64,000 nt of DNA from Mycobacterium sp. Marseille-P9652 (GTDB lineage Bacteria; Actinomycetota; Actinomycetes; Mycobacteriales; Mycobacteriaceae). The stretch is taken from the NCBI RefSeq assembly GCF_902652685.1, contig NZ_CACRUY010000008.1, positions 78,887-142,886 of the forward strand, given 5' to 3'. How positions within the stretch are numbered: position 1 is the stretch's first letter; each line of letters begins with the position of its first letter. Both the position numbers and the translations under genes were made by a program. The notes beneath the pieces were generated by a model. That model worked only from the letters and a program-made list of their open reading frames with translations, did not search any database and had not been told where the DNA came from. Below, piece after piece: positions 49,701-62,012 of this stretch.

Positions 49701-50934
49701 CGGCGACGTGTACCTGGTCGTCGACAACTACCGCGCGCTGGCCGAGGAGAACGAGGTCCTGATCGAACAGGTCAACGTGATCATCAACCAGGGCCCGTCG
49801 TTCGGTGTGCACGTGGTCGTCACCGCGGACCGCGAGTCGGAACTGCGGCCGCCGGTGCGAAGCGGCTTCGGATCCCGCGTCGAGCTGCGGCTGGCCGCGG
49901 TCGAGGACGCGAAGCTGGTGCGGTCGCGGTTCGCCAAGGAGGTTCCGGTCAAGCCGGGCCGCGGCATGGTCGCGGTCAACTACGTCCGCCTCGACGCCGA
50001 CCCGCAGGCGGGCCTGCACACGCTGATCGCCCGCCCCGCGCTGGCCACCACCCCGGACAACGTCTTCTCCTCCGACAGCATCGTCGACGCGGTCAGCAGG
50101 CTCACCAGCGCCCAGGCGCCGCCGGTGCGCCGGCTGCCGGCCATCTTCGGCGTGCAGCAGGTGCGCGAGCTCGCCGCGCGGGACACCCGCCAGGGTGTCG
50201 GCGCGGGCGGAATCGCCTGGGCGATCTCGGAATTGGACCTGGCGCCGGTGTACCTCAACTTCGCGGAGAACTCGCACCTGATGGTGACGGGCCGCCGCGA
50301 GTGCGGGCGCACCACGACGCTGGCGACGATCATGTCGGAGATCGGCCGGCTCTACGCGCCGGGCGCCACCAGCGCGCCGCCGCCACCGGCCGGGCGACCC
50401 TCGGCACAGGTGTGGCTGGTCGACCCGCGTCGTCAACTGCTGACGGTGTTGGGTTCCGAATATGTCGAGAAGTTCGCCTACAACCTCGACGGCGTCAACG
50501 CCATGATGACGGACCTGGCTGCCGTCCTGGCCGGCCGCGAGCCGCCGCCCGGATTGTCGGCGGAGGAGTTGCTGTCGCGGTCGTGGTGGAGCGGTCCGGA
50601 GATCTTCCTGATCGTCGACGACATCCAGCAGCTTCCGACGGGTTTCGACTCGCCGCTGCACAAGGCCGCGCCCTGGGTCAACCGGGCGGCGGACGTCGGT
50701 CTGCACGTGCTCGTCACCCGCACCTTCGGCGGATGGTCGTCGGCGGGCAGCGACCCGATGCTGCGGGCGCTGGCGCAGGCGAACTCGCCGCTGCTGGTGA
50801 TGGACGCCGACCCCGACGAGGGCTTCATCCGCGGCAAGATGAAGGGTGGACCGCTACCCCGAGGCCGCGGCCTGCTCATGGCCGAGGACACCGGCGTGTT
50901 CGTCCAGGTGGCGGCGACCGAACTCCGCAAGTAA
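46771..50934 (+). CDS. eccC5: ESX-5 type VII secretion FtsK/SpoIIIE-type ATPase EccC5
   Basis: This 1,387-aa motor protein has two N-terminal membrane helices (WWLIVVGVVVIGLLGGMVAMVF and the following AIFPIFMVGGMMMMMF), then a DUF domain and three ATPase domains. Walker A of domain 1 is GTTGSGKST (499-507), with Walker B ending VVVIDEF. Domain 2 has GAGGSGKTT (872-880) with VVDNY. Domain 3 has GRRECGRTTT (from 1174), where the P-loop Lys is Arg, with IVDDI. This pattern, one canonical and two degenerate sites, is usual for EccC. It recognises substrate signals and drives export. As in H37Rv reannotations, the gene is a single frame. Confidence 0.97.
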   Translation: MKRGFARPTPEKPPVIKPENIVLPTPLSIPPPEGKPWWLIVVGVVVIGLLGGMVAMVFASGSHVFGGAGAIFPIFMVGGMMMMMFGGRFGGQQQMSRPKLDAMRAQFMLMLDMLRETAHESADSMDANYRWFHPAPTTLTAAVGSPRMWERKPDGKDLNFGVVRVGVGMTRPEVTWGEPQNMPTDIELEPVTGKALQEFGRYQSVVYNLPKMISIMVEPWYSLVGDREQVLSLMRAIICQLAFSHGPDHVQMIVVSSDLDEWDWVKWIPHFGDPRRQDAAGNARMVYASVREFAAEQAELFAGRGSFTPRHASSSAQTPTPHTVIIADVTDPQWEYVISAEGIDGVTFFDLTGASMWSSVPERTLRFNERGVIEALPRDRDTWMVIDEQPWFFALTDHLTGAEAEEFAQKLARWRLAEAYEEIGQRVAHIGARDIMAYYGIDDPADIDFNELWGKRTDALGRSRLRAPFGNRSDNGELLFLDMKSLDEGGDGPHGVMSGTTGSGKSTLVRTVIESLMLGHPPEELQFVLADLKGGSAVKPFAGVPHVSRIITDLEEDQALMERFLDALWGEIARRKAICDSAGVDDAKEYNSVRLRMRARGQDMPPLPMLVVVIDEFYEWFRIMPTAVDVLDSIGRQGRAYWIHLMMASQTIESRAEKLMENMGYRLVLKARTAGAAQAAGVPNAVNLPAQAGLGYFRKSLEDIIRFQAEFLWRDYIPRGLTLDGDDGPALVHSIDYVRPQLFTNSFTPLDITVGGPDIEAVTAHSNGELLEAEAEDEEEGGIRVPKVGTVIIDQLRKIDFEPYRLWQPPLNQPVAIDELVNRFLGHPWQQDYGTARDLVFPIGLIDRPFKHDQPPWTVDTSGPGSNVLILGAGGSGKTTALQTLICSAALTHTPEQVQFYCLGYSSTALTTVARLPHVGEVAGPTDPYGVRRTVAELLALVRERKRTFLEYGIASMEVFRRRKFAGEPGPVPNDGFGDVYLVVDNYRALAEENEVLIEQVNVIINQGPSFGVHVVVTADRESELRPPVRSGFGSRVELRLAAVEDAKLVRSRFAKEVPVKPGRGMVAVNYVRLDADPQAGLHTLIARPALATTPDNVFSSDSIVDAVSRLTSAQAPPVRRLPAIFGVQQVRELAARDTRQGVGAGGIAWAISELDLAPVYLNFAENSHLMVTGRRECGRTTTLATIMSEIGRLYAPGATSAPPPPAGRPSAQVWLVDPRRQLLTVLGSEYVEKFAYNLDGVNAMMTDLAAVLAGREPPPGLSAEELLSRSWWSGPEIFLIVDDIQQLPTGFDSPLHKAAPWVNRAADVGLHVLVTRTFGGWSSAGSDPMLRALAQANSPLLVMDADPDEGFIRGKMKGGPLPRGRGLLMAEDTGVFVQVAATELRK

Positions 50935-50966
50935 GGGACGGCTGCCGCTGCGTTGGGGTTGGGAGA

Positions 50967-52560
<1,594 letters not shown>

Positions 52561-52629
52561 AGAACGGCCGGAAGCGGACCCGACGCGCCGCGACCGACTC
52601 GCTCCCGTGCGCCAAATGCGAACGGCACG

Positions 52630-52713
52630 TGAACATTCGGTTGTTCCAGATGAACGCCGGTTGGCCGGGATTGAACAATCGTTGGCGCCGAGTGAACAGT
52701 TGGCATCGCGGGT
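52630..52713 (+). promoter_or_regulatory. Four TGAAC direct repeats at exact 21-bp spacing
   Basis: TGAAC begins at 52630, 52651, 52672 and 52693, so the spacing is 21 bp each time, or two helical turns. Each copy is followed within 3-6 bases by GTTG or a near match. The last copy, AGTGAACAGTTGGC, is repeated exactly upstream of the PE gene at 54401. A regulator binding array is the likely meaning; the protein is unknown. Confidence 0.75.
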
Positions 52714-52735
52714 CGGCGCACCCGTCGGGAGCAGT

Positions 52736-52741
52736 TAATCT
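52736..52741 (+). promoter_or_regulatory. Candidate -10 TAATCT for the PPE gene
   Basis: TAATCT begins 43 bp after the last TGAAC, exactly the distance seen at the PE promoter (54403 to 54446). The extended match is TTAATCTC versus TTAGTCTC. No -35 hexamer is visible. Confidence 0.5.
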
Positions 52742-53087
52742 CGTTTGCGAGCGGCAGTTCAGTGCAAAAGCGGGCTGTCGCTCGGTTGCTGACAGCGGGG
52801 GTGATTGGGGCAGATAGTGCATGTCGATCCTGATCAGAAGTCCGGGAATGCCGGTGGCACACCACCGATCCGGACGCGACGGACGGATGCGCCACCGGCT
52901 CCCGGCCACCTTTGCAACTGGGTTTGCTGGTCGAAGGATCCAACTCAGGTAGGCGGTGTCTGATGGGTCAACGAAGCCCGAGGCCGGCGACGCATGACAA
53001 GGCCGTGACGGCGGCCGACTTGAGTTCTTAAAGTTCTTATATGAGAGCCGAGATCGTTATCGATCACGGCCGACTGAGGAGGACACG

Positions 53088-54341
53088 GTGTTCGACTTCG
53101 GAGCGTTACCGCCCGAAATCAATTCCGGTCGGATGTACGCGGGCCCGGGGGCTGAGTCGATCATGGTTGCCGCCACGGCGTGGGACGCGCTGGCGGCGGA
53201 ACTGTCGACCGCGGCGAGTGGTTACAACTCGGTGATCACCGAGCTGACCAGCGCCCCCTGGGTGGGGCCCTCGTCGACCGCGATGGTCTCGGCCGTCGTG
53301 CCCTACGTCAGCTGGCTCAGCTCGGCGGCCGGCCTGGCCGAGGAAAGCGCAAGTCAGGCGCGGGCGGCCGCGGGCGCGTTCGAGGCCGCGTTCGCGATGA
53401 CCGTGCCGCCGCCGGTGATCGCGGCCAACCGGGTGCTGCTGATGACGCTGGTGGCGACGAACTTCTTCGGGCAGAACACCCCCGCGATCATGGCGACCGA
53501 GGCCCAGTACATGGAGATGTGGGCCCAAGACGCCGCGGCCATGTACGGCTACGCCGCCTCGTCGGCCGCCGCCACACAGCTGACCCCCTACCAGTCGCCG
53601 CAGAACACGACCACCCCCGAGGGCGTGGCGAACCAGGGCCTCGCGGTGGCCCAGGCCACCGCCCAGCCGGCCGGCAACACCGGGCAGACGGCGGCGGCGA
53701 CCACTAGCAACCTCACCCAGGCCGCCGGGATACCCGACATCCTGCAAGCACTGTCGAACTACACCGCCACCAACTGGCCGTTCACCATGATCCAGAACCA
53801 GATCCAGGCCTTCCTCACCTACGGGCTGCCCACCCCGACCAACAACTGGTTCGGGATCACCACGGGCATGTACGACACGATCCGGCGCTTTGCGCAGGCC
53901 TACTTCGGCGTCGGCCTCGCGAACTTCGGCTGGTCGATCGGCCAGCAGTTGACGTTCGGCCAGGGCACGACGGTCGGCGCGGCCGACGGCCCGTTCCCGA
54001 CGCCGCAGTTCGCCGGCCTGCACCTGGGCGCCGTCAGCGGCGTCAGCGCCGTGAGTGGCGGCAACCCCGGCGGCGGAGCCCTGCTGGCCAGCGCCGGTAG
54101 CGCCGGCAAGGTCGGCGCTCTGTCCGTGCCGACCAGCTGGACCAACTCGGCGACCGAGGCCACGCTCGTCAGCGCGGTGTCCGAGGAGGCCCCGGCGGCG
54201 GGCGCGGGCGGGCCCGGCAGCAACACCCTGTTGCGCGGGATGCCGATGGCAGGCACCGCGCGGCGCAGCGCGGGCTACGGCTACACCAACAAGTACGGGT
54301 TCAAGCACAGCGTGCTGACACGACCGCCGTCGGCCGGGTGA
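53088..54341 (+). CDS. PPE family protein (PPE-SVP type), module 1 first PPE
   Basis: This 417-aa protein has the PPE N-terminal domain ([20 protein letters not shown], about 180 residues) that pairs with a PE protein and is bound by EspG5. The C-terminal part has the SVP motif in GALSVPTSW and ends [16 protein letters not shown]. It is most similar in the window to the PPE at 56534. Place corresponds to PPE25. GTG 53088 follows GAGGAGG. It is predicted to be exported by ESX-5. Confidence 0.93.
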
Positions 54342-54381
54342 CCACGATGTCCGTTCGAGCCAGGCCGCACAGGGCCGCAAA

Positions 54382-54407
54382 TGAACACCAGTTGTCCACC
54401 AGTGAAC
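54382..54407 (+). promoter_or_regulatory. Two TGAAC direct repeats at 21-bp spacing (PE promoter)
   Basis: TGAAC begins at 54382 and 54403. The second lies in AGTGAACAGTTGGC, a 14-bp exact match to 52691-52704. The PE start codon is 133 bp downstream. Confidence 0.7.
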
Positions 54408-54445
54408 AGTTGGCGCTAAGGAGGCGCGACGCGACGCGATCCGAT

Positions 54446-54451
54446 TAGTCT
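54446..54451 (+). promoter_or_regulatory. Candidate -10 TAGTCT for the PE-PPE operon
   Basis: The hexamer begins 43 bp after the second TGAAC, in the extended context TTAGTCTC. Confidence 0.45.
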
Positions 54452-54535
54452 CACTAGCAAGCCATGCCTGCAGTGAAATTCGAGCAGCAAACATTCTTTC
54501 AAGGTCACCGAGCCTGAGGTTGAGGAGGGATTTTC

Positions 54536-54835
54536 ATGTCGTTTGTGACTACGCAGCCCGAAGCGTTGGCGGCTGCGGCGGGCACGTTGCAGGGCATCGG
54601 CTCGGCGCTGAGCGCCCAGAACGCCGCGGCGGCTGCCCCGACGACGGGTGTAGTGCCCGCGGCCGCCGACGAGGTGTCGGCGCTGACCGCGGCTCAGTTC
54701 GCCGCGCACGCGCAGATGTACCAGGCCGTCAGCGCCCAGGCTGACGCCATCCACCAGATGTTCGTCAACACCCTGGGCGTCAGCTCTGGGTCGTACGCGG
54801 CGACCGAGGCGGCCAACGCGGCCGCGGCCGGCTAG
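54536..54835 (+). CDS. PE family protein, module 1
   Basis: This 99-aa protein consists only of the PE domain (MSFVTTQPEALAAAAGTLQGIG), a helical hairpin that pairs with a PPE partner. It ends with YAATE, the YxxxD/E secretion signal read by type VII systems. The PPE gene follows 11 bp later, so the pair is co-produced. Place corresponds to PE18. Confidence 0.95.
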   Translation: MSFVTTQPEALAAAAGTLQGIGSALSAQNAAAAAPTTGVVPAAADEVSALTAAQFAAHAQMYQAVSAQADAIHQMFVNTLGVSSGSYAATEAANAAAAG

Positions 54836-54846
54836 GGGGTCAGAAC

Positions 54847-56079
54847 ATGACTATCGATCTAGGCGCACTGCCGCCGGAGGTCTCCTCCGCGATGATCTAC
54901 GCGGGCCCGGGTTCCGGGTCGCTGACGACCGCGGCAGCGGCGTGGAACGGCCTGGCCGCCGAGCTCAACGCGGCCGCACTGGGCTACGACCAGGTCATCA
55001 CCTCGCTCGCGGGCGAGGAGTGGCTGGGGCCCGCCTCCGGCGCCATGGCGGCGGCGGCGCAGCCGTACGTGGACTGGATGACGACCACCGCCGGGATTGC
55101 GGAACAGACCGCCGGCCAGCACATGTCGGCCGCGGCGGCCTACGAGACCGTGCTCGCCTCCGTCGTCCCGCCGCCCCTGATCGCCCTGAACCGCGCCGAG
55201 CTGGCGCAGGCACAAGCGACGAACATCCTGGGCCAGAACAACGGCATCATCGCGCAGCTCGAGGCGCAGTACGCCCAGTTCTGGGCGCAGAACGCGTCGG
55301 CGCTGTACAGCTACGCCGGCCAGTCCGCGGCGGCGACGAAGGTGACGCCCGTCCAGAACGCGCCGAACATCGTGAACCCGTCGGGAACCACCACCCAGGC
55401 GGCCGCGGTCACGGCGGCGCAGGCCACTCCGGCCGCGACGATCCAGGACTTCCTGACCCAGGTCCAGCAGCAGCTGGGCGCCCTGGCGGGACCGTTCGCC
55501 AACGTGGGCGCGACGCAATCCGCGGTCACTGGGATCACGAACACCAACCCGCTGCTGACGGAGGCGTGGTTCCTGATCAGCGGCCAGACCGTATTGCCGA
55601 GCAACTTCGGCACGATGATCAACGGCTACGCGCCCTACGCCAGCCTCTTCTACAACACCGAGGGTCTGCCCTACTTCAGCGTCGGTATGGGCAACTTCGG
55701 TGTCCAGATGGCCAAGACGCTGGGCATGATCGGCGGTGCGGCCCCGGCCGCCGCCGCGGCCGTGCCGAAGGCGCTGCCCGGCCTGGGCGGTCTCCTCGGC
55801 GGCGGTGCGGCCGGCGCGGCGGCCCACCTCGGCAGCGCCACCTCGATCGGCAAGCTGTCGGTGCCGGCCACCTGGGCCAGCGCCGTCGGCCCCGGCACGA
55901 TCGGGCATGCGCCGCAGCTGGTCAGCACCGTGAGCGCCGCCCCGGAGGCGGCTGGCGGAACCGGAAACCTGCTGGGCGGCATGCCGCTGGCGGGCATGGG
56001 CACCGGGACCTCCGGTGCCGCCGGCCCCCGTTACGGCTTCAAGCCGACCGTCATGGCCCGGCCGCCGCTGGGCGGGTAG
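54847..56079 (+). CDS. PPE family protein, module 1 second PPE
   Basis: This 410-aa protein has the PPE domain (MTIDLGALPPEVSSAMIYAGPG) and a C-terminal region with KLSVPATW and the ending RYGFKPTVMARPPLGG. It is the probable dimer partner of the PE encoded just upstream. It pairs in sequence with the PPE at 58235, sharing NTEGLPYFS(V/I)G and SATSIGKLSVPA(T/S)W. Place corresponds to PPE26. A strong terminator follows (56179-56212). Confidence 0.93.
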   Translation: MTIDLGALPPEVSSAMIYAGPGSGSLTTAAAAWNGLAAELNAAALGYDQVITSLAGEEWLGPASGAMAAAAQPYVDWMTTTAGIAEQTAGQHMSAAAAYETVLASVVPPPLIALNRAELAQAQATNILGQNNGIIAQLEAQYAQFWAQNASALYSYAGQSAAATKVTPVQNAPNIVNPSGTTTQAAAVTAAQATPAATIQDFLTQVQQQLGALAGPFANVGATQSAVTGITNTNPLLTEAWFLISGQTVLPSNFGTMINGYAPYASLFYNTEGLPYFSVGMGNFGVQMAKTLGMIGGAAPAAAAAVPKALPGLGGLLGGGAAGAAAHLGSATSIGKLSVPATWASAVGPGTIGHAPQLVSTVSAAPEAAGGTGNLLGGMPLAGMGTGTSGAAGPRYGFKPTVMARPPLGG

Positions 56080-56533
56080 CCACTCGTTTCACCACCGATG
56101 CTCCGGGCGTCCCACCGTCGCCCGGAGCAGCGGTGTTTTCCTGGCAGATGACCGACCCGCTCGCGGGTCTGGACGGGCTCCGGACCGGCTTTAGCCGCGG
56201 CCGGATTTTTTTGCCTCCCGGGCGGTTTGGCACCGCCGCCCACGGCCCGGGACGCCGCTGCCCGCGCCGCCCAAAATCGGGTCGGCGCGCCAATTCATGA
56301 CGCGTTTCCCCAGATAGAAGCCCTTTCCGGGCGAGAGCCCTCCCCGCGGGGCGCCGCTCGCCCTCTGCTCCGATCGTGCGGCCGCGCGGCGGCCGTCGCA
56401 GGCCCGTCGGGCGCATCGCCGGGCCTCGGCCGGCGCCGGCCCGGCTTAGCCTCGCAAGCGAGCGGGTCAGGGTCGGCAGTCATAACAGCTTGCGGGGAAT
56501 CACATGTCAATCGAGTCCGGCGGTTCGTAGGCC
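56080..56533. other. Inter-module gap in the PE/PPE block
   Basis: The 454-bp gap contains an intrinsic terminator (56179-56212) and a palindrome CTCGC-AA-GCGAG (56451-56462). No TGAAC repeat and no clear -10 were found upstream of the next PPE gene, and that gene has only a weak ribosome binding site. Confidence 0.55.
56179..56212 (+). terminator. Intrinsic terminator after module 1
   Basis: The outer arms TCCGG/CCGGA and inner arms CGGC/GCCG enclose a TTTA loop, with a small internal loop, and seven T follow (56206-56212). This classic form is uncommon in mycobacteria. It should end transcription of the first PE-PPE pair. Confidence 0.75.
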
Positions 56534-57778
56534 ATGGACTTTGGTGCGTTGCCGCCCGAGATCAACTCGGGCCGGATGTACGCGGGCCCGGGCTCGGGGT
56601 CGATGATGGCGGCCGCTTCGGCGTGGGACGGCCTGGCCGCCGAGTTGGCTACGACGGCGGCGGGCTATTCGTCGGTGGTCTCCGAGCTGACCGGCTCGCC
56701 GTGGTTGGGCCCGGCGTCGCGGTCGATGCTCGCCGCGGCCACGCCGTACATTTCCTGGCTGAACGCGGCGGCCGGGCTGGCCGAGGAGGCCGGCAGCCAG
56801 GCGCGCGCCGCGGCCGCCGCCTTCGAGGCCGCGTTCGCCATGACGGTGCCGCCCCCGGTGATCGCGGCCAACCGGGTGCTGCTCATGACGCTGATCGCCA
56901 CCAATTTCTTCGGCCAGAACACCCCCGCGATCGCGGCCACCGAGGCGCAGTACGCCGAGATGTGGGCGCAGGACGCCGCCGCGATGTACGGCTACGCGGG
57001 CGCGTCGGCGACCGCCACCCAACTCACCCCGTTCGCCGAACCGGCGCAGACCACCGACCAGGGCGGGCTGGCCGCCCAGGCGGCCGCCGTCACCCAGGCC
57101 CTGTCCACTCCGGCCGGCACCGGCGTGTCCCAGGCGGCCGCCGCGACCCCCGGGGCGGGCCTGATTCCGGACTCCTTGTCACCCACGTCGGTATTCGCGT
57201 CGATAAACCAACTGTTGCAACAGCTTTCGTCGGGCGCCCTCGCGTCGCCGCTGAATCCGTACACCTGGCCGCTGGTGCAGCAGTTCACCGACCTCAACGT
57301 GGCGAACCGGACCGCGCTCTCGCGCACCACCGTCGGTCTCGCCTACTTCTCGGTCGGCATGGCCAGCTTCTTCGCGTCGATCCAACAGCAGCTGACCTTC
57401 GGCGCCGGAACGACCGCCGGTGCGCAGGGCGCCTGGTACGCGACACCGCAGTTCGCCGGCCTGCACCTGGGGGCCATCAGCGGCGTCAACGCCGTCAGCG
57501 GGCACACCGGGGGAGCGGTGCTGGCCAGCGCGGGCGGCGCCGGCAAGGTCGGGGGCCTGTCGGTGCCGTCGAACTGGGCCGGCGCGCCGGGTGCCGGCGA
57601 GCAGGCCGCCACCCAGGCGGTGACCGCCGATTACGTCACCGGCGAGCAGGCCGGAACCAGCGGGCTGCTGCGCGGCATCCCGATGGGCAGTGGCGGCCGG
57701 CGCGCAGCCGCCTTCGGCTCCTCGCGCGAATACGGCTTCAAGCGAAGCGTCCTCGTCCGTCCCCCGTCGGCCGGGTGA
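56534..57778 (+). CDS. PPE family protein (PPE-SVP type), module 2 first PPE
   Basis: This 414-aa protein has the PPE domain ([20 protein letters not shown]), GLSVPSNW and the ending [16 protein letters not shown]. It is a paralogue of the PPE at 53088, sharing long stretches such as [10 protein letters not shown](V/I)[12 protein letters not shown]. It could correspond to PPE27 or be an extra copy. The only visible start signal is weak, so expression may depend on read-through or an unseen promoter. Confidence 0.92.
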
Positions 57779-57923
57779 TGCGCATGCCGATCGCGAATCA
57801 TCCAGCGCGCCAGCAGATTTCATCTCCCGTGCGGCGCCGTTCCATCCAACCGGCCGCCGGCCCATCGCCTGCGCCGGTCGAGGGCGCGTTACCCGTTTCA
57901 TTCCGAGGACAGGAGTGAGCAGC

Positions 57924-58223
57924 ATGGCATTCGTGACCACCCAGCCCGAGTCCCTCACCGCGGCGGCGGGCGCTCTGCAGGGCATCGGTTCGTCGTTGGC
58001 CGCGCAGAGCGCCGCGGCGGCCGGCCCCACGACGGGAGTGGTACCGGCCGCAGCCGACGAGGTGTCGGCGCTGACGGCCGCGCAATTCGCCGCGCACGCC
58101 CAGCTGTACCAGGCGGTCAGCTCCCAGGCCGCGGCCATCCACGAACTGTTCGTCAACACCCTGGGCATCAGCTCGGGGTCCTACGCGGCGACGGAGGCGG
58201 CCAACGCGGCCGCGGCCGGTTAA
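57924..58223 (+). CDS. PE family protein, module 2
   Basis: This 99-aa PE-domain-only protein (MAFVTTQPESLTAAAGALQGIG) ends with YAATE, the YxxxE export signal. AGGAG precedes ATG 57924. It differs from the other two PE proteins here at several sites (for example AQSAAAAG and ELFVNTLGISSG), so it is the more diverged copy. The next PPE starts 11 bp later. Confidence 0.95.
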   Translation: MAFVTTQPESLTAAAGALQGIGSSLAAQSAAAAGPTTGVVPAAADEVSALTAAQFAAHAQLYQAVSSQAAAIHELFVNTLGISSGSYAATEAANAAAAG

Positions 58224-58234
58224 GGAGTCAGGAC

Positions 58235-59464
58235 ATGGCAATCGACTTTGGTGCGTTTCCGCCGGAAGTGAACTCGGCACGCCTGTACGCGGGCGTGGGC
58301 TCGACCCCGCTGGTGGCGGCGGCCTCGGCGTGGAATTCGCTTGCGGCCGAGCTCAGTTCGGCCGCGATCGACTACGACAAGGTGGTGACCCAGCTGGCCG
58401 GCGAGGAATGGCTTGGGCCCGCCTCGGCGTCCGCGGCGGCAGCGCTGCAGCCGTACGTCGAATGGGTGGGTGCGACCGCCGCGCTCGCCGAGCAGGCGTC
58501 CACGCAGGCCAGCGCGGCCGCGGCCGCCTACGAGGCGGCGTTCGCGTCGATCGTGCCGCCCCCGCTGATCGCCGCCAACCGCGCCGAGCTCGCGCAGGCG
58601 GTGGCGACCAACGTGCTGGGGCAGAACACCGGGATCATTGCCCAACTCGAGGCGCAGTATGGCGAGTTCTGGGCCCAGGACGCCGCGACGATGTACAGCT
58701 ACGCCGGGAACTCGGCGTCGGCGTCCGCCGTCACCCCGTTCGCCGCGCCGCCGCAGGTCGCCAACCCGGCGGCCGCGGCCACCCAGGGGGCCGCGGTCGC
58801 CGCGGCGACAGGCCCGACGGTCAGCTCGATCCAGAACCAGATCAACAGCACGATCAGCCAGATCACCGCGCAGCTGTTCAACCTGGCGGCGCCGTTCGCC
58901 TCGCCGTTGCAGACCGAATACAACTACCTGTCGTCGGCGTCGGGACCGCTGTCGTGGCTGTGGCAGGGCCTGTTCGGGACGCCGGCTTTCCCGGGCCAAA
59001 GCCTGTCCCAATTCATGACCGCCTACCAGCCCTACGCCGGCGTCTTCTACAACACCGAGGGTCTGCCGTACTTCAGCATCGGCCTGAGCAACTCCTTGAC
59101 CCAGACCGCGAAGACCCTCGGCGCGATCGGCGGGGCGGCCCCGGCTGCGGCCGCCGCCGTTCCCAAGTCCCTGCCCGCGCTGGGGGGTCTGCTCGGCAGC
59201 GGCGCCCCGCCGGTGGCGGCGCACCTGGGCAGCGCGACCTCCATCGGGAAGTTGTCGGTGCCGGCCTCGTGGTCCGCGCCGGTACAGGCGATCAACCACG
59301 CGTCCGCGATACCGGTCAGCAACGTCCGGGAGGCCCCCGACGCGGCCCCCGGCAACCTGCTCGGCGGAATGCCCCTGGCGGGCGTGGGCACCGGGGCATC
59401 CGGCTCGGGGCCCCGGTACGGGTTCAAACCCACGGTCATGGCCCGCCCGCCCGCGGCCGGATAG
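58235..59464 (+). CDS. PPE family protein, module 2 second PPE
   Basis: This 409-aa protein has the PPE domain (MAIDFGAFPPEVNSARLYAG) and a C-terminal region with SIGKLSVPASW and ending RYGFKPTVMARPPAAG. It is a paralogue of the PPE at 54847 and probable partner of the PE encoded just upstream. It is followed by a promoter region for the last PE gene. Confidence 0.93.
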   Translation: MAIDFGAFPPEVNSARLYAGVGSTPLVAAASAWNSLAAELSSAAIDYDKVVTQLAGEEWLGPASASAAAALQPYVEWVGATAALAEQASTQASAAAAAYEAAFASIVPPPLIAANRAELAQAVATNVLGQNTGIIAQLEAQYGEFWAQDAATMYSYAGNSASASAVTPFAAPPQVANPAAAATQGAAVAAATGPTVSSIQNQINSTISQITAQLFNLAAPFASPLQTEYNYLSSASGPLSWLWQGLFGTPAFPGQSLSQFMTAYQPYAGVFYNTEGLPYFSIGLSNSLTQTAKTLGAIGGAAPAAAAAVPKSLPALGGLLGSGAPPVAAHLGSATSIGKLSVPASWSAPVQAINHASAIPVSNVREAPDAAPGNLLGGMPLAGVGTGASGSGPRYGFKPTVMARPPAAG

Positions 59465-59770
59465 CCCGTCGCCGTGTGAAGATCACGCATTTGCTCCACG
59501 GGTTTGGCTTCCCAATGCGGTGCGCGCCCTATACCCTGGTCAGGAACCATGTGACGGGTGGGCCCGCACGGGCCGGCTGACGATTTGCTGTGATTGTGTT
59601 TTGACGTCAGCGGGCGGGGTCCGCCGCTGTTACTGTGTCGTTACCAAAAATGAATTCGCCGTGCCGTTCAGTGAACAATTGCGAACAGGCGGCTTCGGAA
59701 AGGTCTTCCGGCGGCGCGCGTCAACTACTCTCTTCGCAGGGAGTGGGGGAATCAACTTAGGAGGAATCCA
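59465..59770. other. Control region upstream of the last PE gene
   Basis: The 306-bp gap carries TGAAT (59651) and TGAAC (59672) at 21-bp spacing, a further CGAAC (59682), the inverted repeat GTTCA-G-TGAAC (59666-59676) and a -10-like TACTCT (59726-59731). No gene seen. Confidence 0.6.
59651..59687 (+). promoter_or_regulatory. TGAA(C/T) repeats at 21-bp spacing (last PE promoter)
   Basis: TGAAT at 59651 and TGAAC at 59672 repeat the 21-bp phase, with CGAAC 10 bp further on. TACTCT at 59726 is 54 bp from the TGAAC, one helical turn more than at the two other promoters, but 44 bp from the CGAAC. Confidence 0.6.
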
Positions 59771-60070
59771 ATGTCGTTTGTGACGACACAGCCCGAGGCA
59801 CTGGCCGCGGCGGCCGGCACCCTGCAGGGCATCGGCTCGGGCCTGAGCGCCCAGAACGCCGCCGCGGCGGCCCCGACCACGGGCGTCGTGCCCGCGGCGG
59901 CCGACGAGGTGTCGGCGCTGACCGCGGCCCAGTTCGCCGCGCACGCGCAGATGTACCAGGCCGTCAGCGCCCAGGCTGACGCCATTCACCAGATGTTCGT
60001 CAACACCCTGGGCGTCAGCGCCGGTTCCTACGCCGCCACCGAGGCGTCCAACGCCGCCGCCGCCGGCTGA
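59771..60070 (+). CDS. PE family protein (PE19-like)
   Basis: This 99-aa PE-domain-only protein is nearly identical to the PE at 54536 (SFVTTQPEALAAAAGTLQGIGSGLSAQ) and ends with YAATE. AGGAGG precedes ATG 59771. It lies just before esxM and esxN, like PE19 in M. tuberculosis. Confidence 0.95.
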   Translation: MSFVTTQPEALAAAAGTLQGIGSGLSAQNAAAAAPTTGVVPAAADEVSALTAAQFAAHAQMYQAVSAQADAIHQMFVNTLGVSAGSYAATEASNAAAAG

Positions 60071-60177
60071 CCGGGGAAGCTCACTCAGGAATCCGGTCCG
60101 TCGGTAGTGACGTGAACCGGCACCACAGTCTTTTTGACGGCAAACAACCATTAATCACGCAGTAAGGAGTCAGCCAC

Positions 60178-60474
60178 ATGGCAACACGTTTTATGACCGA
60201 CCCGCACGAGATGCGGGCGATGGCGGGCCGCTTCGAGGTCCACGCCCAGACCGTTGAGGACGAGGCCCGCAAGATGTGGGCGTCGTCGATGAACATCGCC
60301 GGTGCCGGCTGGAGCGGCCAGGCCCAGGCGACCTCCTACGACACGATGGGGCAGGTCAACCAGGCCTTCCGCAACATCGTCAACATGCTGCACGGGGTGC
60401 GCGACGGCCTGATCCGCGACGCCAACAACTACGAGCAGCAAGAGCAGGCTTCGCAGCAGATCCTCGGCAGCTAG
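60178..60474 (+). CDS. esxM: ESX-5 secreted WXG100 protein EsxM
   Basis: This 98-aa helical-hairpin protein has the WxG turn (GWSGQ, about residue 43) and the C-terminal export motif YEQQE (YxxxE). It should form a secreted heterodimer with EsxN. AAGGAG precedes ATG 60178. Confidence 0.95.
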
Positions 60475-60522
60475 TCGCCGGCCAACTTTCCCAGACATTC
60501 AAACTTTGAGAGGACGTAAACC

Positions 60523-60807
60523 ATGACGATTAACTACCAGTTCGGCGACGTCGACGCCCACGGCGCGACGATTCGCGCCCAGGCCGCCTCGTTGGAGGCC
60601 GAGCACCAGGCCATCGTTCGCGATGTGCTGGCTGCCGGTGACTTCTGGGGTGGCGCCGGTTCGGTGGCTTGCCAGGAGTTCATCACCCAGCTGGGTCGCA
60701 ACTTCCAGGTGATCTACGAGCAGGCCAACGCCCACGGCCAGAAGGTGCAGACGGCAGGCAACAACATGTCGAGCACCGACAGCGCCGTCGGCTCCAGCTG
60801 GGCCTAA
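60523..60807 (+). CDS. esxN: ESX-5 secreted WXG100 protein EsxN
   Basis: This 94-aa protein has the turn FWGGAG (WxG) and the helical-hairpin pattern of ESAT-6-like proteins; it belongs to the EsxN/Mtb9.9 group. It starts 48 bp after esxM and is its partner. Confidence 0.95.
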   Translation: MTINYQFGDVDAHGATIRAQAASLEAEHQAIVRDVLAAGDFWGGAGSVACQEFITQLGRNFQVIYEQANAHGQKVQTAGNNMSSTDSAVGSSWA

Positions 60808-60821
60808 CTTCCCACTTCAGG

Positions 60822-60857
60822 CGCGGCAGCACACCACCCATCCGGTGTGCTGCCGCG
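60822..60857 (+). terminator. 14-bp perfect mRNA hairpin between esxN and espG5
   Basis: The arms 60822-60835 and 60844-60857 pair perfectly (CGCGGCAGCACACC with its complement) around an 8-base loop. No U-run follows, so it is either a weak terminator or a 3'-end stabiliser that gives more esxMN than espG5 mRNA. Confidence 0.65.
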
Positions 60858-60894
60858 TCCTGCGGTTTCCGTGCAATTCGACCTCGAGGTATTG

Positions 60895-61800
60895 ATGGAC
60901 CAACAGAGCACTCGCACCGACATCACCGTCAACGTCGACGGTTTCTGGATGCTCCAGGCGCTACTGGACATCCGGCACGTCGCCCCGGAGTTGCGGTGCC
61001 GGCCCTACGTGTCGACCGACTCCAGCGACTGGCTCAACGAGCACCCCGGCATGGCGGTGATGCGTGAACAGGGCATCGTCGACGCCAACAACGAGGTGCA
61101 CGAGCAGGTCGCCGCGCGCATGCGAGTGCTCGCCGCACCCGACCTCGAGGTGGTCGCGCTGCTGTCCCGGGGCAAGCTGCTCTACGGCGTGGTCGAGGAC
61201 GAGAACCAGCCGCCCGGATCCCGCGACATCCCCGACAACGAGTTCCGCGTGGTGCTCGCCCGCCGCGGCCAGCACTGGGTGTCCGCGGTGCGGGTGGGCA
61301 GCGACATCACGGTCGACGACGTCGCGATCGCCGACAGCGCCTCGATCGCGGCCCTGGTGATGGACGGCCTCGAGTCGATCCACCACGCCGAGCCGGCGGC
61401 GATCAACGCCGTCAACGTGCCTCTGGAGGAAATGCTGGAGGCGACGAAGGACTGGCAGGAGTCCGGATTCAATGTCTTCTCCGGCGGTGACCTGCGGCGC
61501 ATGGGCATCAGCGCCGCCACGGTGGCCGCCCTGGGCCAGGCGCTGTCGGACCCCGCGGCCGAGGTCGCGGTCTACGCGCGCCAGTACCGCGACGACGCGA
61601 AGGGCCCCAGCGCCTCGGTGCTCTCCCTCAAGGACGGTTCCGGTGGCCGCATCGCGCTGTACCAGCAGGCGCGAACCGCCGGATCCGGCGAGGCGTGGCT
61701 GGCAATCTGCCCCGCGACTCCGCAACTCGTCCAGGTGGGCGTCAAAACGGTTCTGGACACGCTGCCCTACGGCGAATGGAAATCGCACCGCAGGGTGTGA
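60895..61800 (+). CDS. espG5: ESX-5 chaperone EspG5
   Basis: This 301-aa cytosolic protein starts MDQQSTRTDITVNVDGFW and matches EspG5 closely, including RHVAPELRCRPYVSTDS and GFNVFSGGDLRRMGISAA. It binds the tip of PE-PPE dimers and keeps them soluble for export. ATG 60895 is chosen; an upstream extension to 60847 is unlikely. It lies just after the esxN hairpin. Confidence 0.96.
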   Translation: MDQQSTRTDITVNVDGFWMLQALLDIRHVAPELRCRPYVSTDSSDWLNEHPGMAVMREQGIVDANNEVHEQVAARMRVLAAPDLEVVALLSRGKLLYGVVEDENQPPGSRDIPDNEFRVVLARRGQHWVSAVRVGSDITVDDVAIADSASIAALVMDGLESIHHAEPAAINAVNVPLEEMLEATKDWQESGFNVFSGGDLRRMGISAATVAALGQALSDPAAEVAVYARQYRDDAKGPSASVLSLKDGSGGRIALYQQARTAGSGEAWLAICPATPQLVQVGVKTVLDTLPYGEWKSHRRV

Positions 61801-61879
61801 ATTTCCGATGCGAAACACAATGTTTACCAATGGTTTTGCGCTTAGCAGGCGGCCGAGATGCGAACACGGCATACTTCTC

Positions 61880-61885
61880 TAGAAT
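61880..61885 (+). promoter_or_regulatory. Candidate -10 TAGAAT upstream of eccD5
   Basis: TAGAAT lies in an AT-rich stretch of the 208-bp gap between espG5 and eccD5. It would give a start site about 115 bp before the eccD5 ATG. No good -35 is seen. Confidence 0.4.
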
Positions 61886-61940
61886 CATCAGCAAATCCCA
61901 GACAAGTGTCACCACGACTCATGACCGCAAGGCGAGGCAG

Positions 61941-62012
61941 ATGAAATCCGAAATGCTCGGGCTGGTGGCACGCAATCACACAAACACCATGGCAGGGGGT
62001 GCACGGCGATGA
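61941..62012 (+). CDS. Possible 23-residue leader ORF coupled to eccD5
   Basis: ATG 61941 follows GGCGAGG and opens a frame starting MKSEMLGLVARNH. Its TGA (62010-62012) overlaps the eccD5 ATG as ATGA. The overlap would couple translation of the leader and eccD5. The peptide matches nothing I recognise. Confidence 0.35.
   Translation: MKSEMLGLVARNHTNTMAGGARR

What the first reader, a model, noticed from the sequence alone, without database searches (positions are those of the whole stretch)
52630..52741. Four TGAAC elements at exact 21-bp spacing, fixed distance from a -10, upstream of the first ESX-5 PPE gene
TGAAC occurs at 52630, 52651, 52672 and 52693. Such exact phasing over two helical turns suggests cooperative binding of a dimeric regulator on one DNA face. 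The last copy is 43 bp before TAATCT, and the same 43-bp distance recurs at the PE promoter. I know of no described regulator with this pattern at ESX-5.
Basis: seen in the sequence. Interest (0 to 1): 0.85.

Follow-up and report, generated by a model that had tools for sequence, protein, structure and literature searches.

The report
Phosphate-sensor binding array at ESX-5 promoters
A row of evenly spaced DNA docking sites, well conserved across many slow-growing mycobacteria, sits in front of genes linked to the ESX-5 secretion machine and is most likely where the phosphate-starvation regulator RegX3 binds to switch them on.

Summary
Four TGAAC elements at exact 21-bp steps lie 43 bp (start to start) before TAATCT. 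A two-element version precedes the next PE gene, and a third related site precedes the PE19-type PE gene. In 49 loci found through a neighbouring gene, TGAAC pairs 6-60 bp apart lie at 21 (106 pairs) or 42 bp (67), once at 23. Aligned without selecting for the motif, TGAAC columns are 89% identical to the window, against 53% between them and 49% in the flanks. The distance to the -10-like box is 43 in 51 and 44 in 9 of 62 sequences. Copy number differs between species in whole 21-bp steps. Weaker half-sites fill the gaps, giving a 10/11-bp lattice of OmpR/PhoB response-regulator type. The array's head, CAAAC-N6-TGAAC, recurs at the senX3 promoter and a divergent pstS promoter: 12 of 34 classified non-ESX-5 hits. 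RegX3 is reported to bind and regulate esx-5 genes in M. tuberculosis. Best reading: a RegX3 operator array coupling these PE/PPE promoters to phosphate starvation. The kind is known; the multi-copy 21-bp architecture was not found in the papers searched. RegX3 binding itself was not tested.

The parts
52619..52623 (+). head half-site CGAAC, 11 bp before the first TGAAC
   Evidence: 56 of 61 distinct arrays with at least three units have NNAAC here: CAAAC in 34, CGAAC in 18, four others once each; AAC columns 87% identical over 49 unselected rows
52630..52634 (+). TGAAC element 1
   Evidence: columns 86-90% identical over 49 unselected rows
52651..52655 (+). TGAAC element 2
   Evidence: columns 86-90%
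52661..52665 (+). weak intermediate half-site TTGGC (YYGRC type), 10 bp after element 2
   Evidence: seen in sequence; unit offsets 9, 12 and 14 are conserved in unit 2 of 34 four-unit arrays
52672..52676 (+). TGAAC element 3
   Evidence: columns 90-98%
52682..52686 (+). weak intermediate half-site TTGGC, 10 bp after element 3
   Evidence: seen in sequence; unit offsets 9 and 11-15 are conserved in unit 3 of 34 four-unit arrays
52693..52697 (+). TGAAC element 4, promoter-proximal
   Evidence: columns 78-94%, the last base being T in one clade
52713..52718 (+). presumed -35 region (TCGGCG), 20 bp after the start of element 4
   Evidence: TCGG stands here in most PPE25-type rows but not in the PE18-type rows; role inferred from the -10-like box
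52736..52741 (+). -10-like box TAATCT, 43 bp from the start of element 4
   Evidence: 43 bp in 51, 44 in 9, none found in 2 of 62 distinct sequences, distances of about 37-52 searched; 87% identical over 49 unselected rows
54382..54386 (+). TGAAC element a, PE18-type promoter
54403..54407 (+). TGAAC element b, PE18-type promoter
54446..54451 (+). -10-like box TAGTCT, 43 bp from element b
   Evidence: 43 bp in 16, 44 in 2, 42 in 1, none found in 1 of 20 distinct PE18-type sequences
59651..59655 (+). TGAAT element, PE19-type promoter (TTAC at 59641)
   Evidence: PE19-type pattern in 57 of 297 genomes
59672..59676 (+). TGAAC element, 21 bp after the TGAAT
59682..59686 (+). CGAAC promoter-proximal half-site, 44 bp before TACTCT (59726)
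53088..54341 (+). first ESX-5 PPE gene (PPE25 position)
   Evidence: Pfam PPE and PPE-SVP
54536..54835 (+). PE gene (PE18 position)
   Evidence: Pfam PE
59771..60070 (+). PE gene (PE19 position), before two WXG100 genes, an EspG gene and an EccD gene
   Evidence: Pfam PE; WXG100 at 60178 and 60523, EspG at 60847, EccD at 62009

Best explanation
The array is a multi-dimer operator for phosphorylated RegX3, the response regulator of the SenX3-RegX3 phosphate-starvation system. RegX3 DNA-binding domains bind head to tail to direct-repeat half-sites (strong: TGAAC; weaker: NNAAC or YYGRC) spaced 10 or 11 bp, so each dimer takes up about 21 bp and up to four dimers stack on one helix face. The promoter-proximal half-site is held 43-44 bp before the -10-like box, placing the last dimer just upstream of the -35 region where it can contact RNA polymerase and activate transcription of the ESX-5 PE/PPE genes when phosphate is scarce. 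Shown here: the elements, their spacing, their conservation, the shared promoter geometry, and the shared half-site pair at senX3 and one pstS promoter. Inferred: that RegX3 is the protein, that the boxes are real promoters, that it activates, and that copies bind cooperatively.
For: Position and phase conserved: 106 TGAAC pairs at 21 bp, 67 at 42, one at 23 and none at other distances from 6 to 60 in 49 loci. In an alignment of all 49 without selection for the motif, identity to the window is 89% in TGAAC columns, 53% between them, 49% in the flanks. Distance to the -10-like box 43 in 51 of 62 PPE25-type and 16 of 20 PE18-type sequences. In 37 of 39 PE19-type promoters the second TGAAC lies 53 or 54 bp before the box, so the half-site 10 bp further on lies 43-44 bp before it. 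Head NNAAC-N6-TGAAC in 56 of 61. The triple CAAAC-N6-T(G/A)AAC-N6-NGAAC stands on the coding strand of the gpm1-senX3 intergenic region in 6 of 6 genomes searched, with CAAAT at the head in one; the gene after it in the window's genome has HisKA and HATPase_c domains. Its 3-half-site score is 17.3-19.1, against a background 95th percentile of 16.1 and maximum of 17.3 in 381 windows. CAAAC-N6-TGAAC in 14 genomes: of 38 classified loci, 7 are senX3, 5 the divergent pstS promoter, 4 ESX-5. [quoted passage not shown] pe19 is listed among SenX3-RegX3 regulated genes (PMC13192937, passage); GTGAAC is given as the RegX3 repeat (PMC7525159, passage).
Against: No binding or expression data were available here. 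The published motif description is an inverted repeat, not a direct one. Of 20 pstS upstream regions, scored on the pstS-coding strand only, 4 passed the 95% background line, and the pstS group printed shows no TGAAC lattice by eye. The window's own PE19-type site scores 15.9, below the 95% line of 16.1. The 21-bp two-unit pattern with 0-1 mismatch was found only at the two ESX-5 promoters in 10 genomes, so senX3 and pstS share the half-site pair but not the 21-bp array; senX3 uses 11+11 bp. 22 of the 38 classified CAAAC-N6-TGAAC loci are neither Pho nor ESX-5, 28 of the 66 hits were not classified, and the reversed control pattern itself gave 32 hits against 66. The weights were set after the arrays had been seen. 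RegX3 is thought to be universal in mycobacteria (recalled), so co-occurrence cannot test it.
Confidence: 0.75

Rival explanations
1. Another OmpR/PhoB-type response regulator (GlnR, MtrA, PhoP or an uncharacterised one) binds the same kind of tandem direct repeats.
For: The geometry (two half-sites per dimer, dimers in tandem) is general to the family (recalled). The amt promoters of the same genomes show such a layout with GAAAC repeated at 22 bp (6 of 6 in one orthologue group, counted by eye on the alignment); that these are GlnR sites is recalled.
Against: The amt half-site is GAAAC, not TGAAC, at 22 and not 21 bp. The TGAAC type is instead shared with senX3 and a pstS promoter. The control is imperfect: my recalled GlnR consensus GTNAC-N6-GNAAC matched none of the 6 promoters of that group and 2 of 6 in the other. 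MtrA and PhoP motifs were not tested.
Confidence: 0.13
2. An AraC/XylS-type activator binds 21-bp direct repeats, with TGAAC as box A and GTTGGCC as box B.
For: A 21-bp direct-repeat spacing with two boxes one turn apart is typical of that family (recalled).
Against: The box B match is shifted in unit 1 and unit 4 and altered in one clade (by eye). The head AAC half-site 11 bp upstream and the extra CGAAC in the PE19-type promoter fit a 10/11-bp half-site lattice better.
Confidence: 0.05
3. A dedicated ESX-5 regulator, not yet described, that recognises a half-site like RegX3's.
For: Two-unit 21-bp matches with 0-1 mismatch (21 hits) occur only at the two ESX-5 promoters in 10 genomes, which were chosen because they hold the array.
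Against: Sharing of the head pair with senX3 and pstS. No search for such a regulator gene was made here.
Confidence: 0.05
4. Neutral tandem duplication of a 21-mer, codon-phase repetition or chance.
For: Two-copy TGAAC-N16-TGAAC is found at 24 further places in the genome.
Against: Units share little beyond TGAAC (by eye), while TGAAC columns are 89% and the spaces 53% identical to the window across 49 unselected rows; no frame is open in all 54 arrays; 0 of 100 shuffles hold the four-copy run.
Confidence: 0.02

Closest known systems
RegX3 sites / regulation of esx-5 by SenX3-RegX3 in M. tuberculosis
   Same: GTGAAC-type half-site; same secretion locus; pe19 is a SenX3-RegX3 regulated gene; RegX3 reported to bind esx-5 directly (PMC6016242, PMC13192937, PMC7525159; passages only)
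   Different: PMC7525159 describes the motif as an inverted repeat with a 5-7 nt spacer; here TGAAC units are direct repeats at 21 bp, up to four of them, and also lie at the PPE25 and PE18 positions. PPE25 has 0 occurrences in the main text of PMC6016242 and PMC13192937.
PHO boxes of actinobacteria (Streptomyces PhoP, Microlunatus PolR)
   Same: Half-site GTTCA(C) is the reverse complement of (G)TGAAC; direct repeats, with complex operators in Streptomyces (PMC6754071, PMC4415409; passages)
   Different: 11-nt units; here strong sites alternate with weak ones in 10+11-bp steps, and TGAAC is on the coding strand of the PE/PPE genes.
amt promoter sites of the same genomes (GlnR by recall)
   Same: Tandem direct repeats with an AAC-type half-site
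   Different: Half-site GAAAC at 22 bp, not TGAAC at 21 bp

Membership tests
RegX3 operator (Pho regulon) | GTGAAC / GTTCAC-type half-sites | tested here: met
   TGAAC conserved at 4 positions; published repeat GTGAAC (passage); the base before TGAAC varies
RegX3 operator (Pho regulon) | published arrangement of the half-sites (inverted repeat with 5-7 nt spacer, or the 11-nt direct repeats of PHO boxes) | tested here: inconclusive
   Head pair is an 11-bp direct repeat, intermediate half-sites at 10/11 bp are degenerate, strong TGAAC elements step by 21, not 22; no inverted GTGAAC repeat was noticed in the array (by eye)
RegX3 operator (Pho regulon) | Same motif at Pho-regulon promoters of the same genomes | tested here: met
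   senX3 in 6 of 6 aligned genomes; 7 senX3 and 5 pstS promoters among 38 classified hits in 14 genomes. Against: 16 of 20 pstS upstream regions did not pass the background line
RegX3 operator (Pho regulon) | RegX3-P binds it and phosphate starvation activates the promoter | not testable with these tools
   needs footprint and reporter assays
GlnR operator | GAAAC-type b-sites at 22 bp, as at the amt promoters of the same genomes (GlnR by recall) | tested here: not met
   array has TGAAC at 21 bp; amt promoters have GAAAC at 22 bp
AraC/XylS operator | box A and box B at fixed offset in every repeat (recalled) | tested here: inconclusive
   by eye the GTTGG box is shifted in units 1 and 4 and altered in one clade

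The most novel reading that the evidence does not exclude
A regulator oligomer of tunable length: in some slow growers the ESX-5 PE/PPE promoters have gained RegX3-dimer sites in whole 21-bp steps (two, three, four), giving species-specific, possibly switch-like activation of the same secretion locus, through a stacking mode at 21 bp that differs from the 22-bp PHO box; or the binder is an undescribed ESX-5-specific regulator that borrows the RegX3 half-site.
Probability: 0.3. Interest if true: 0.7.

Novelty: new variant of a known kind. Interest (0 to 1): 0.55.

Why it matters
It gives a base-level model, testable at once, of how ESX-5 PE/PPE genes would respond to phosphate starvation in many slow-growing mycobacteria. 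It would extend a regulator reported for esx-5 and pe19 to two further promoters. It also offers a natural series of promoters with two, three and four operator units at constant geometry, useful for asking what cooperativity does.

Tried and rejected
SigL-type -35 repeats and WhiB/LexA/EspR-type sites were considered from memory only and dropped. The AraC/XylS reading was my first idea and was given up when the 10/11-bp half-sites and the PE19-type promoter were seen. pstS upstream regions were scanned for TGAAC/GTTCA with mostly negative result; searches used loci in contig orientation, so their upstream/downstream sense is not reliable. One search oriented them but scored only the pstS-coding strand, so it could not see the box that later showed on the other strand of one pstS group. 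GTTCA-N6-GTTCA (a strict 11-bp box) gave 7 hits in 4 of 5 genomes, none followed up. Rfam found nothing at gathering threshold in 50900-62000. The plasmid collection has no stretch similar to 52600-53130. A first conservation measure (99% in TGAAC columns, 76% between, 34 arrays) is partly true by construction, since those rows were picked for TGAA[CT], without that selection, replaces it. Literature: searches, in an open-licence library, listed no paper that I recognised as describing a 21-bp TGAAC array at PPE25; only listings and passages were looked at, and key papers on RegX3 binding could not be read. Passages in PMC12301784, PMC5741670 and PMC12977502 added nothing on the motif.

Full report
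What is there. The window is part of an unnamed Mycobacterium genome (5.7 Mb, 128 contigs). Among 49 loci in titled genome records found by the P450 protein next to the array, the closest by identity is M. bohemicum at 87%. Between a ferredoxin gene (52366-52560) and the first ESX-5 PPE gene (53088-54341; Pfam) TGAAC stands at 52630, 52651, 52672 and 52693. WXG100, EspG and EccD genes follow further on. The names PPE25, PE18, PE19 and ESX-5 are given by position, from recall of the M. tuberculosis gene order.

Is it more than chance. The four-copy pattern is found once in the window and in 0 of 100 shuffles. Two-copy matches alone are weak evidence: the genome has 28, only 4 of them here. The decisive evidence is conservation. 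In the 49 loci, counting all TGAAC pairs 6-60 bp apart in the 1300 nt upstream of the P450 start, 106 pairs are 21 bp apart, 67 are 42, one is 23 and none is at any other distance. 44 of 49 have at least two TGAA[CT] at 21 bp: 34 with four, 5 with three, 5 with two. One of the two-unit ones (L139) is the PE19-type promoter, not the PPE25-type. Of the five without, M. celatum (L134) has a three-unit array elsewhere in its locus and L142 a PE19-type site; L133, L141 and L143 have none. I then aligned 1000 nt from all 49, with no choice of rows by motif: identity to the window averages 89% in the TGAAC columns, 53% between them, 49% in the flanks and 87% in TAATCT. An earlier figure of 99% against 76% over 34 four-unit arrays is partly true by construction. 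These species are related and not independent; no tree was made.

Wider searches. By DNA similarity 69 of 198 genus genomes matched, many only at the start of the PPE gene; all 29 other-genome loci returned (L010-L038, the best-ranked ones) hold the 21-bp pair. A three-copy pattern matched in 99 of 396 genomes, an upper bound: of the 29 new loci of that search (L039-L067), 6 were unrelated repeats by inspection. No frame is open in all 54 distinct four-unit arrays.

Geometry. From the start of the last unit to the start of the -10-like box is 43 bp in 51, 44 in 9 and not found in 2 of 62 distinct PPE25-type sequences; for PE18-type ones it is 43 in 16, 44 in 2, 42 in 1 and not found in 1 of 20 (only about 37-52 bp were searched, and loci L009-L145 without the six unrelated ones). 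In the window both are 43. A third promoter, before the PE19-type PE gene, has TGAAT at 59651, TGAAC at 59672 and CGAAC at 59682; its pattern occurs in 57 of 297 genomes. There the second TGAAC is 53 bp (24), 54 bp (13) or at no found distance (2) before the box in 39 distinct sequences (about 45-62 bp searched), so the half-site 10 bp further on is 43-44 bp before it. The three promoters thus hold a promoter-proximal half-site at the same distance. The unit is about 10.5 bp: in units 2 and 3 weak YYGRC half-sites follow TGAAC by 10 bp, and an NNAAC head precedes the first TGAAC by 11 bp in 56 of 61 distinct arrays.

How specific. A degenerate two-unit pattern, up to 2 mismatches, in 10 genomes chosen because they hold the array, gave 57 hits; the 21 with 0-1 mismatch are all at the PPE25-type and PE18-type promoters of this locus, and the other 36, with 2 mismatches, include further array units and scattered places. 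The reversed control gave 8.

Who binds. Direct-repeat half-sites in 10-11-bp steps are the signature of OmpR/PhoB-type response regulators (family knowledge). RegX3 belongs to that family (recalled) and is reported to bind and regulate esx-5 genes directly (PMC6016242, passage); pe19 is listed among SenX3-RegX3 regulated genes (PMC13192937, passage). Its motif is described as an inverted repeat of GTGAAC (PMC7525159, passage) or as 'GT/GTCAcc-n4-cG' (PMC7884335, passage). Test one: the gpm1-senX3 intergenic region of all 6 genomes searched has the triple CAAAC-N6-TGAAC-N6-NGAAC on the coding strand (TAAAC in the middle in two, CAAAT at the head in one); the gene that follows in the window's genome has HisKA and HATPase_c domains. 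Its 3-half-site score is 17.3-19.1, against a 95th percentile of 16.1 and a maximum of 17.3 in 381 background windows; the window's PPE25, PE18 and PE19 sites score 19.0, 18.6 and 15.9, the last below the 95% line (weights chosen after seeing the arrays). Test two: CAAAC-N6-TGAAC gave 8 hits in 3 genomes and 58 in 11 more, against 6 and 26 for the reversed control. I classified the 38 of these 66 for which loci were returned: 7 senX3, 5 a divergent pstS/DUF4436 promoter, 4 ESX-5, 22 neither. senX3 was the prior candidate; the pstS class was added after seeing the hits. Two promoters taking 12 of 34 non-ESX-5 loci in genomes of 5-6 Mb is very unlikely by chance. Against: of 20 pstS upstream regions scored, on the coding strand only, 4 passed the 95% line.

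Controls. In 6 of 6 amt promoters of one orthologue group GAAAC repeats at 22 bp (by eye), so the presumed GlnR half-site differs from TGAAC; but the consensus for GlnR that I recalled matched none of these six and two of six in the other amt group, so the name GlnR is not secured here.

Evolution. Six records have two units, TGAAC then TGAAT, after a TAAC head (L211, L213, L215, L218, L132, and L135, which is also L217); M. celatum has three; 34 of the 49 have four. By eye the distance to a -10-like box is 43 in the two-unit ones as well (listing). The array seems to change length in whole 21-bp steps on its upstream side; this is inferred from the comparison, without a tree.

Verdict. The finding is real, strongly conserved and looks functional. 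It is most likely a RegX3 operator array, a new variant of a known kind. Binding, activation and cooperativity are inferred. In the searches listed I saw no paper describing it, but the library holds only open-licence papers and three papers on RegX3 and pe19 were not readable.

Noticed in passing
window 52736-53087: From the start of the -10-like box to the PPE start is 352 nt, a long leader; the same interval is about 295 nt in L211 and 322 nt in L213 (worked out). No Rfam family matches at gathering threshold.
   Followed up: partly
window 57779-58234: A further PE-like reading frame (begins MAFVTTQPESL, read by eye) lies here before the PPE at 58235; one search lists no TGAAC or TGAAT in this stretch.
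   Followed up: no
window 60113: A single TGAAC stands upstream of the WXG100 gene at 60178, without a 21-bp partner.
   Followed up: no
L195 / G134:C4:1350000 and 1351065: One genome holds the PE19-type promoter pattern twice, about 1 kb apart, as if the promoter region had been duplicated.
   Followed up: no
L211, L213, L215, L218, L132, and L135 (= L217): The first-PPE promoter has only two units (TGAAC, then TGAAT 21 bp on) after a TAAC head; in all six records the second unit is followed by (A/T)GTTGG, as in the window. Three of the eight stretches fetched (L212, L214, L216) show only the PE19-type pair.
   Followed up: partly
L157, L158, L159, L160: A pstS gene lies divergent from a DUF4436 gene (Pfam on L233), and the shared intergenic region carries AAAC-N6-TGAAC in three and AAAG-N6-TGAAC in L160.
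   Followed up: partly
L239: CAAAC-N6-TGAAC followed by an AT-rich stretch; a possible further RegX3-type promoter, gene not identified.
   Followed up: no
L131, L140: Two loci keep three units (the last TGAAT) but no -10-like box was found at about 37-52 bp.
   Followed up: no
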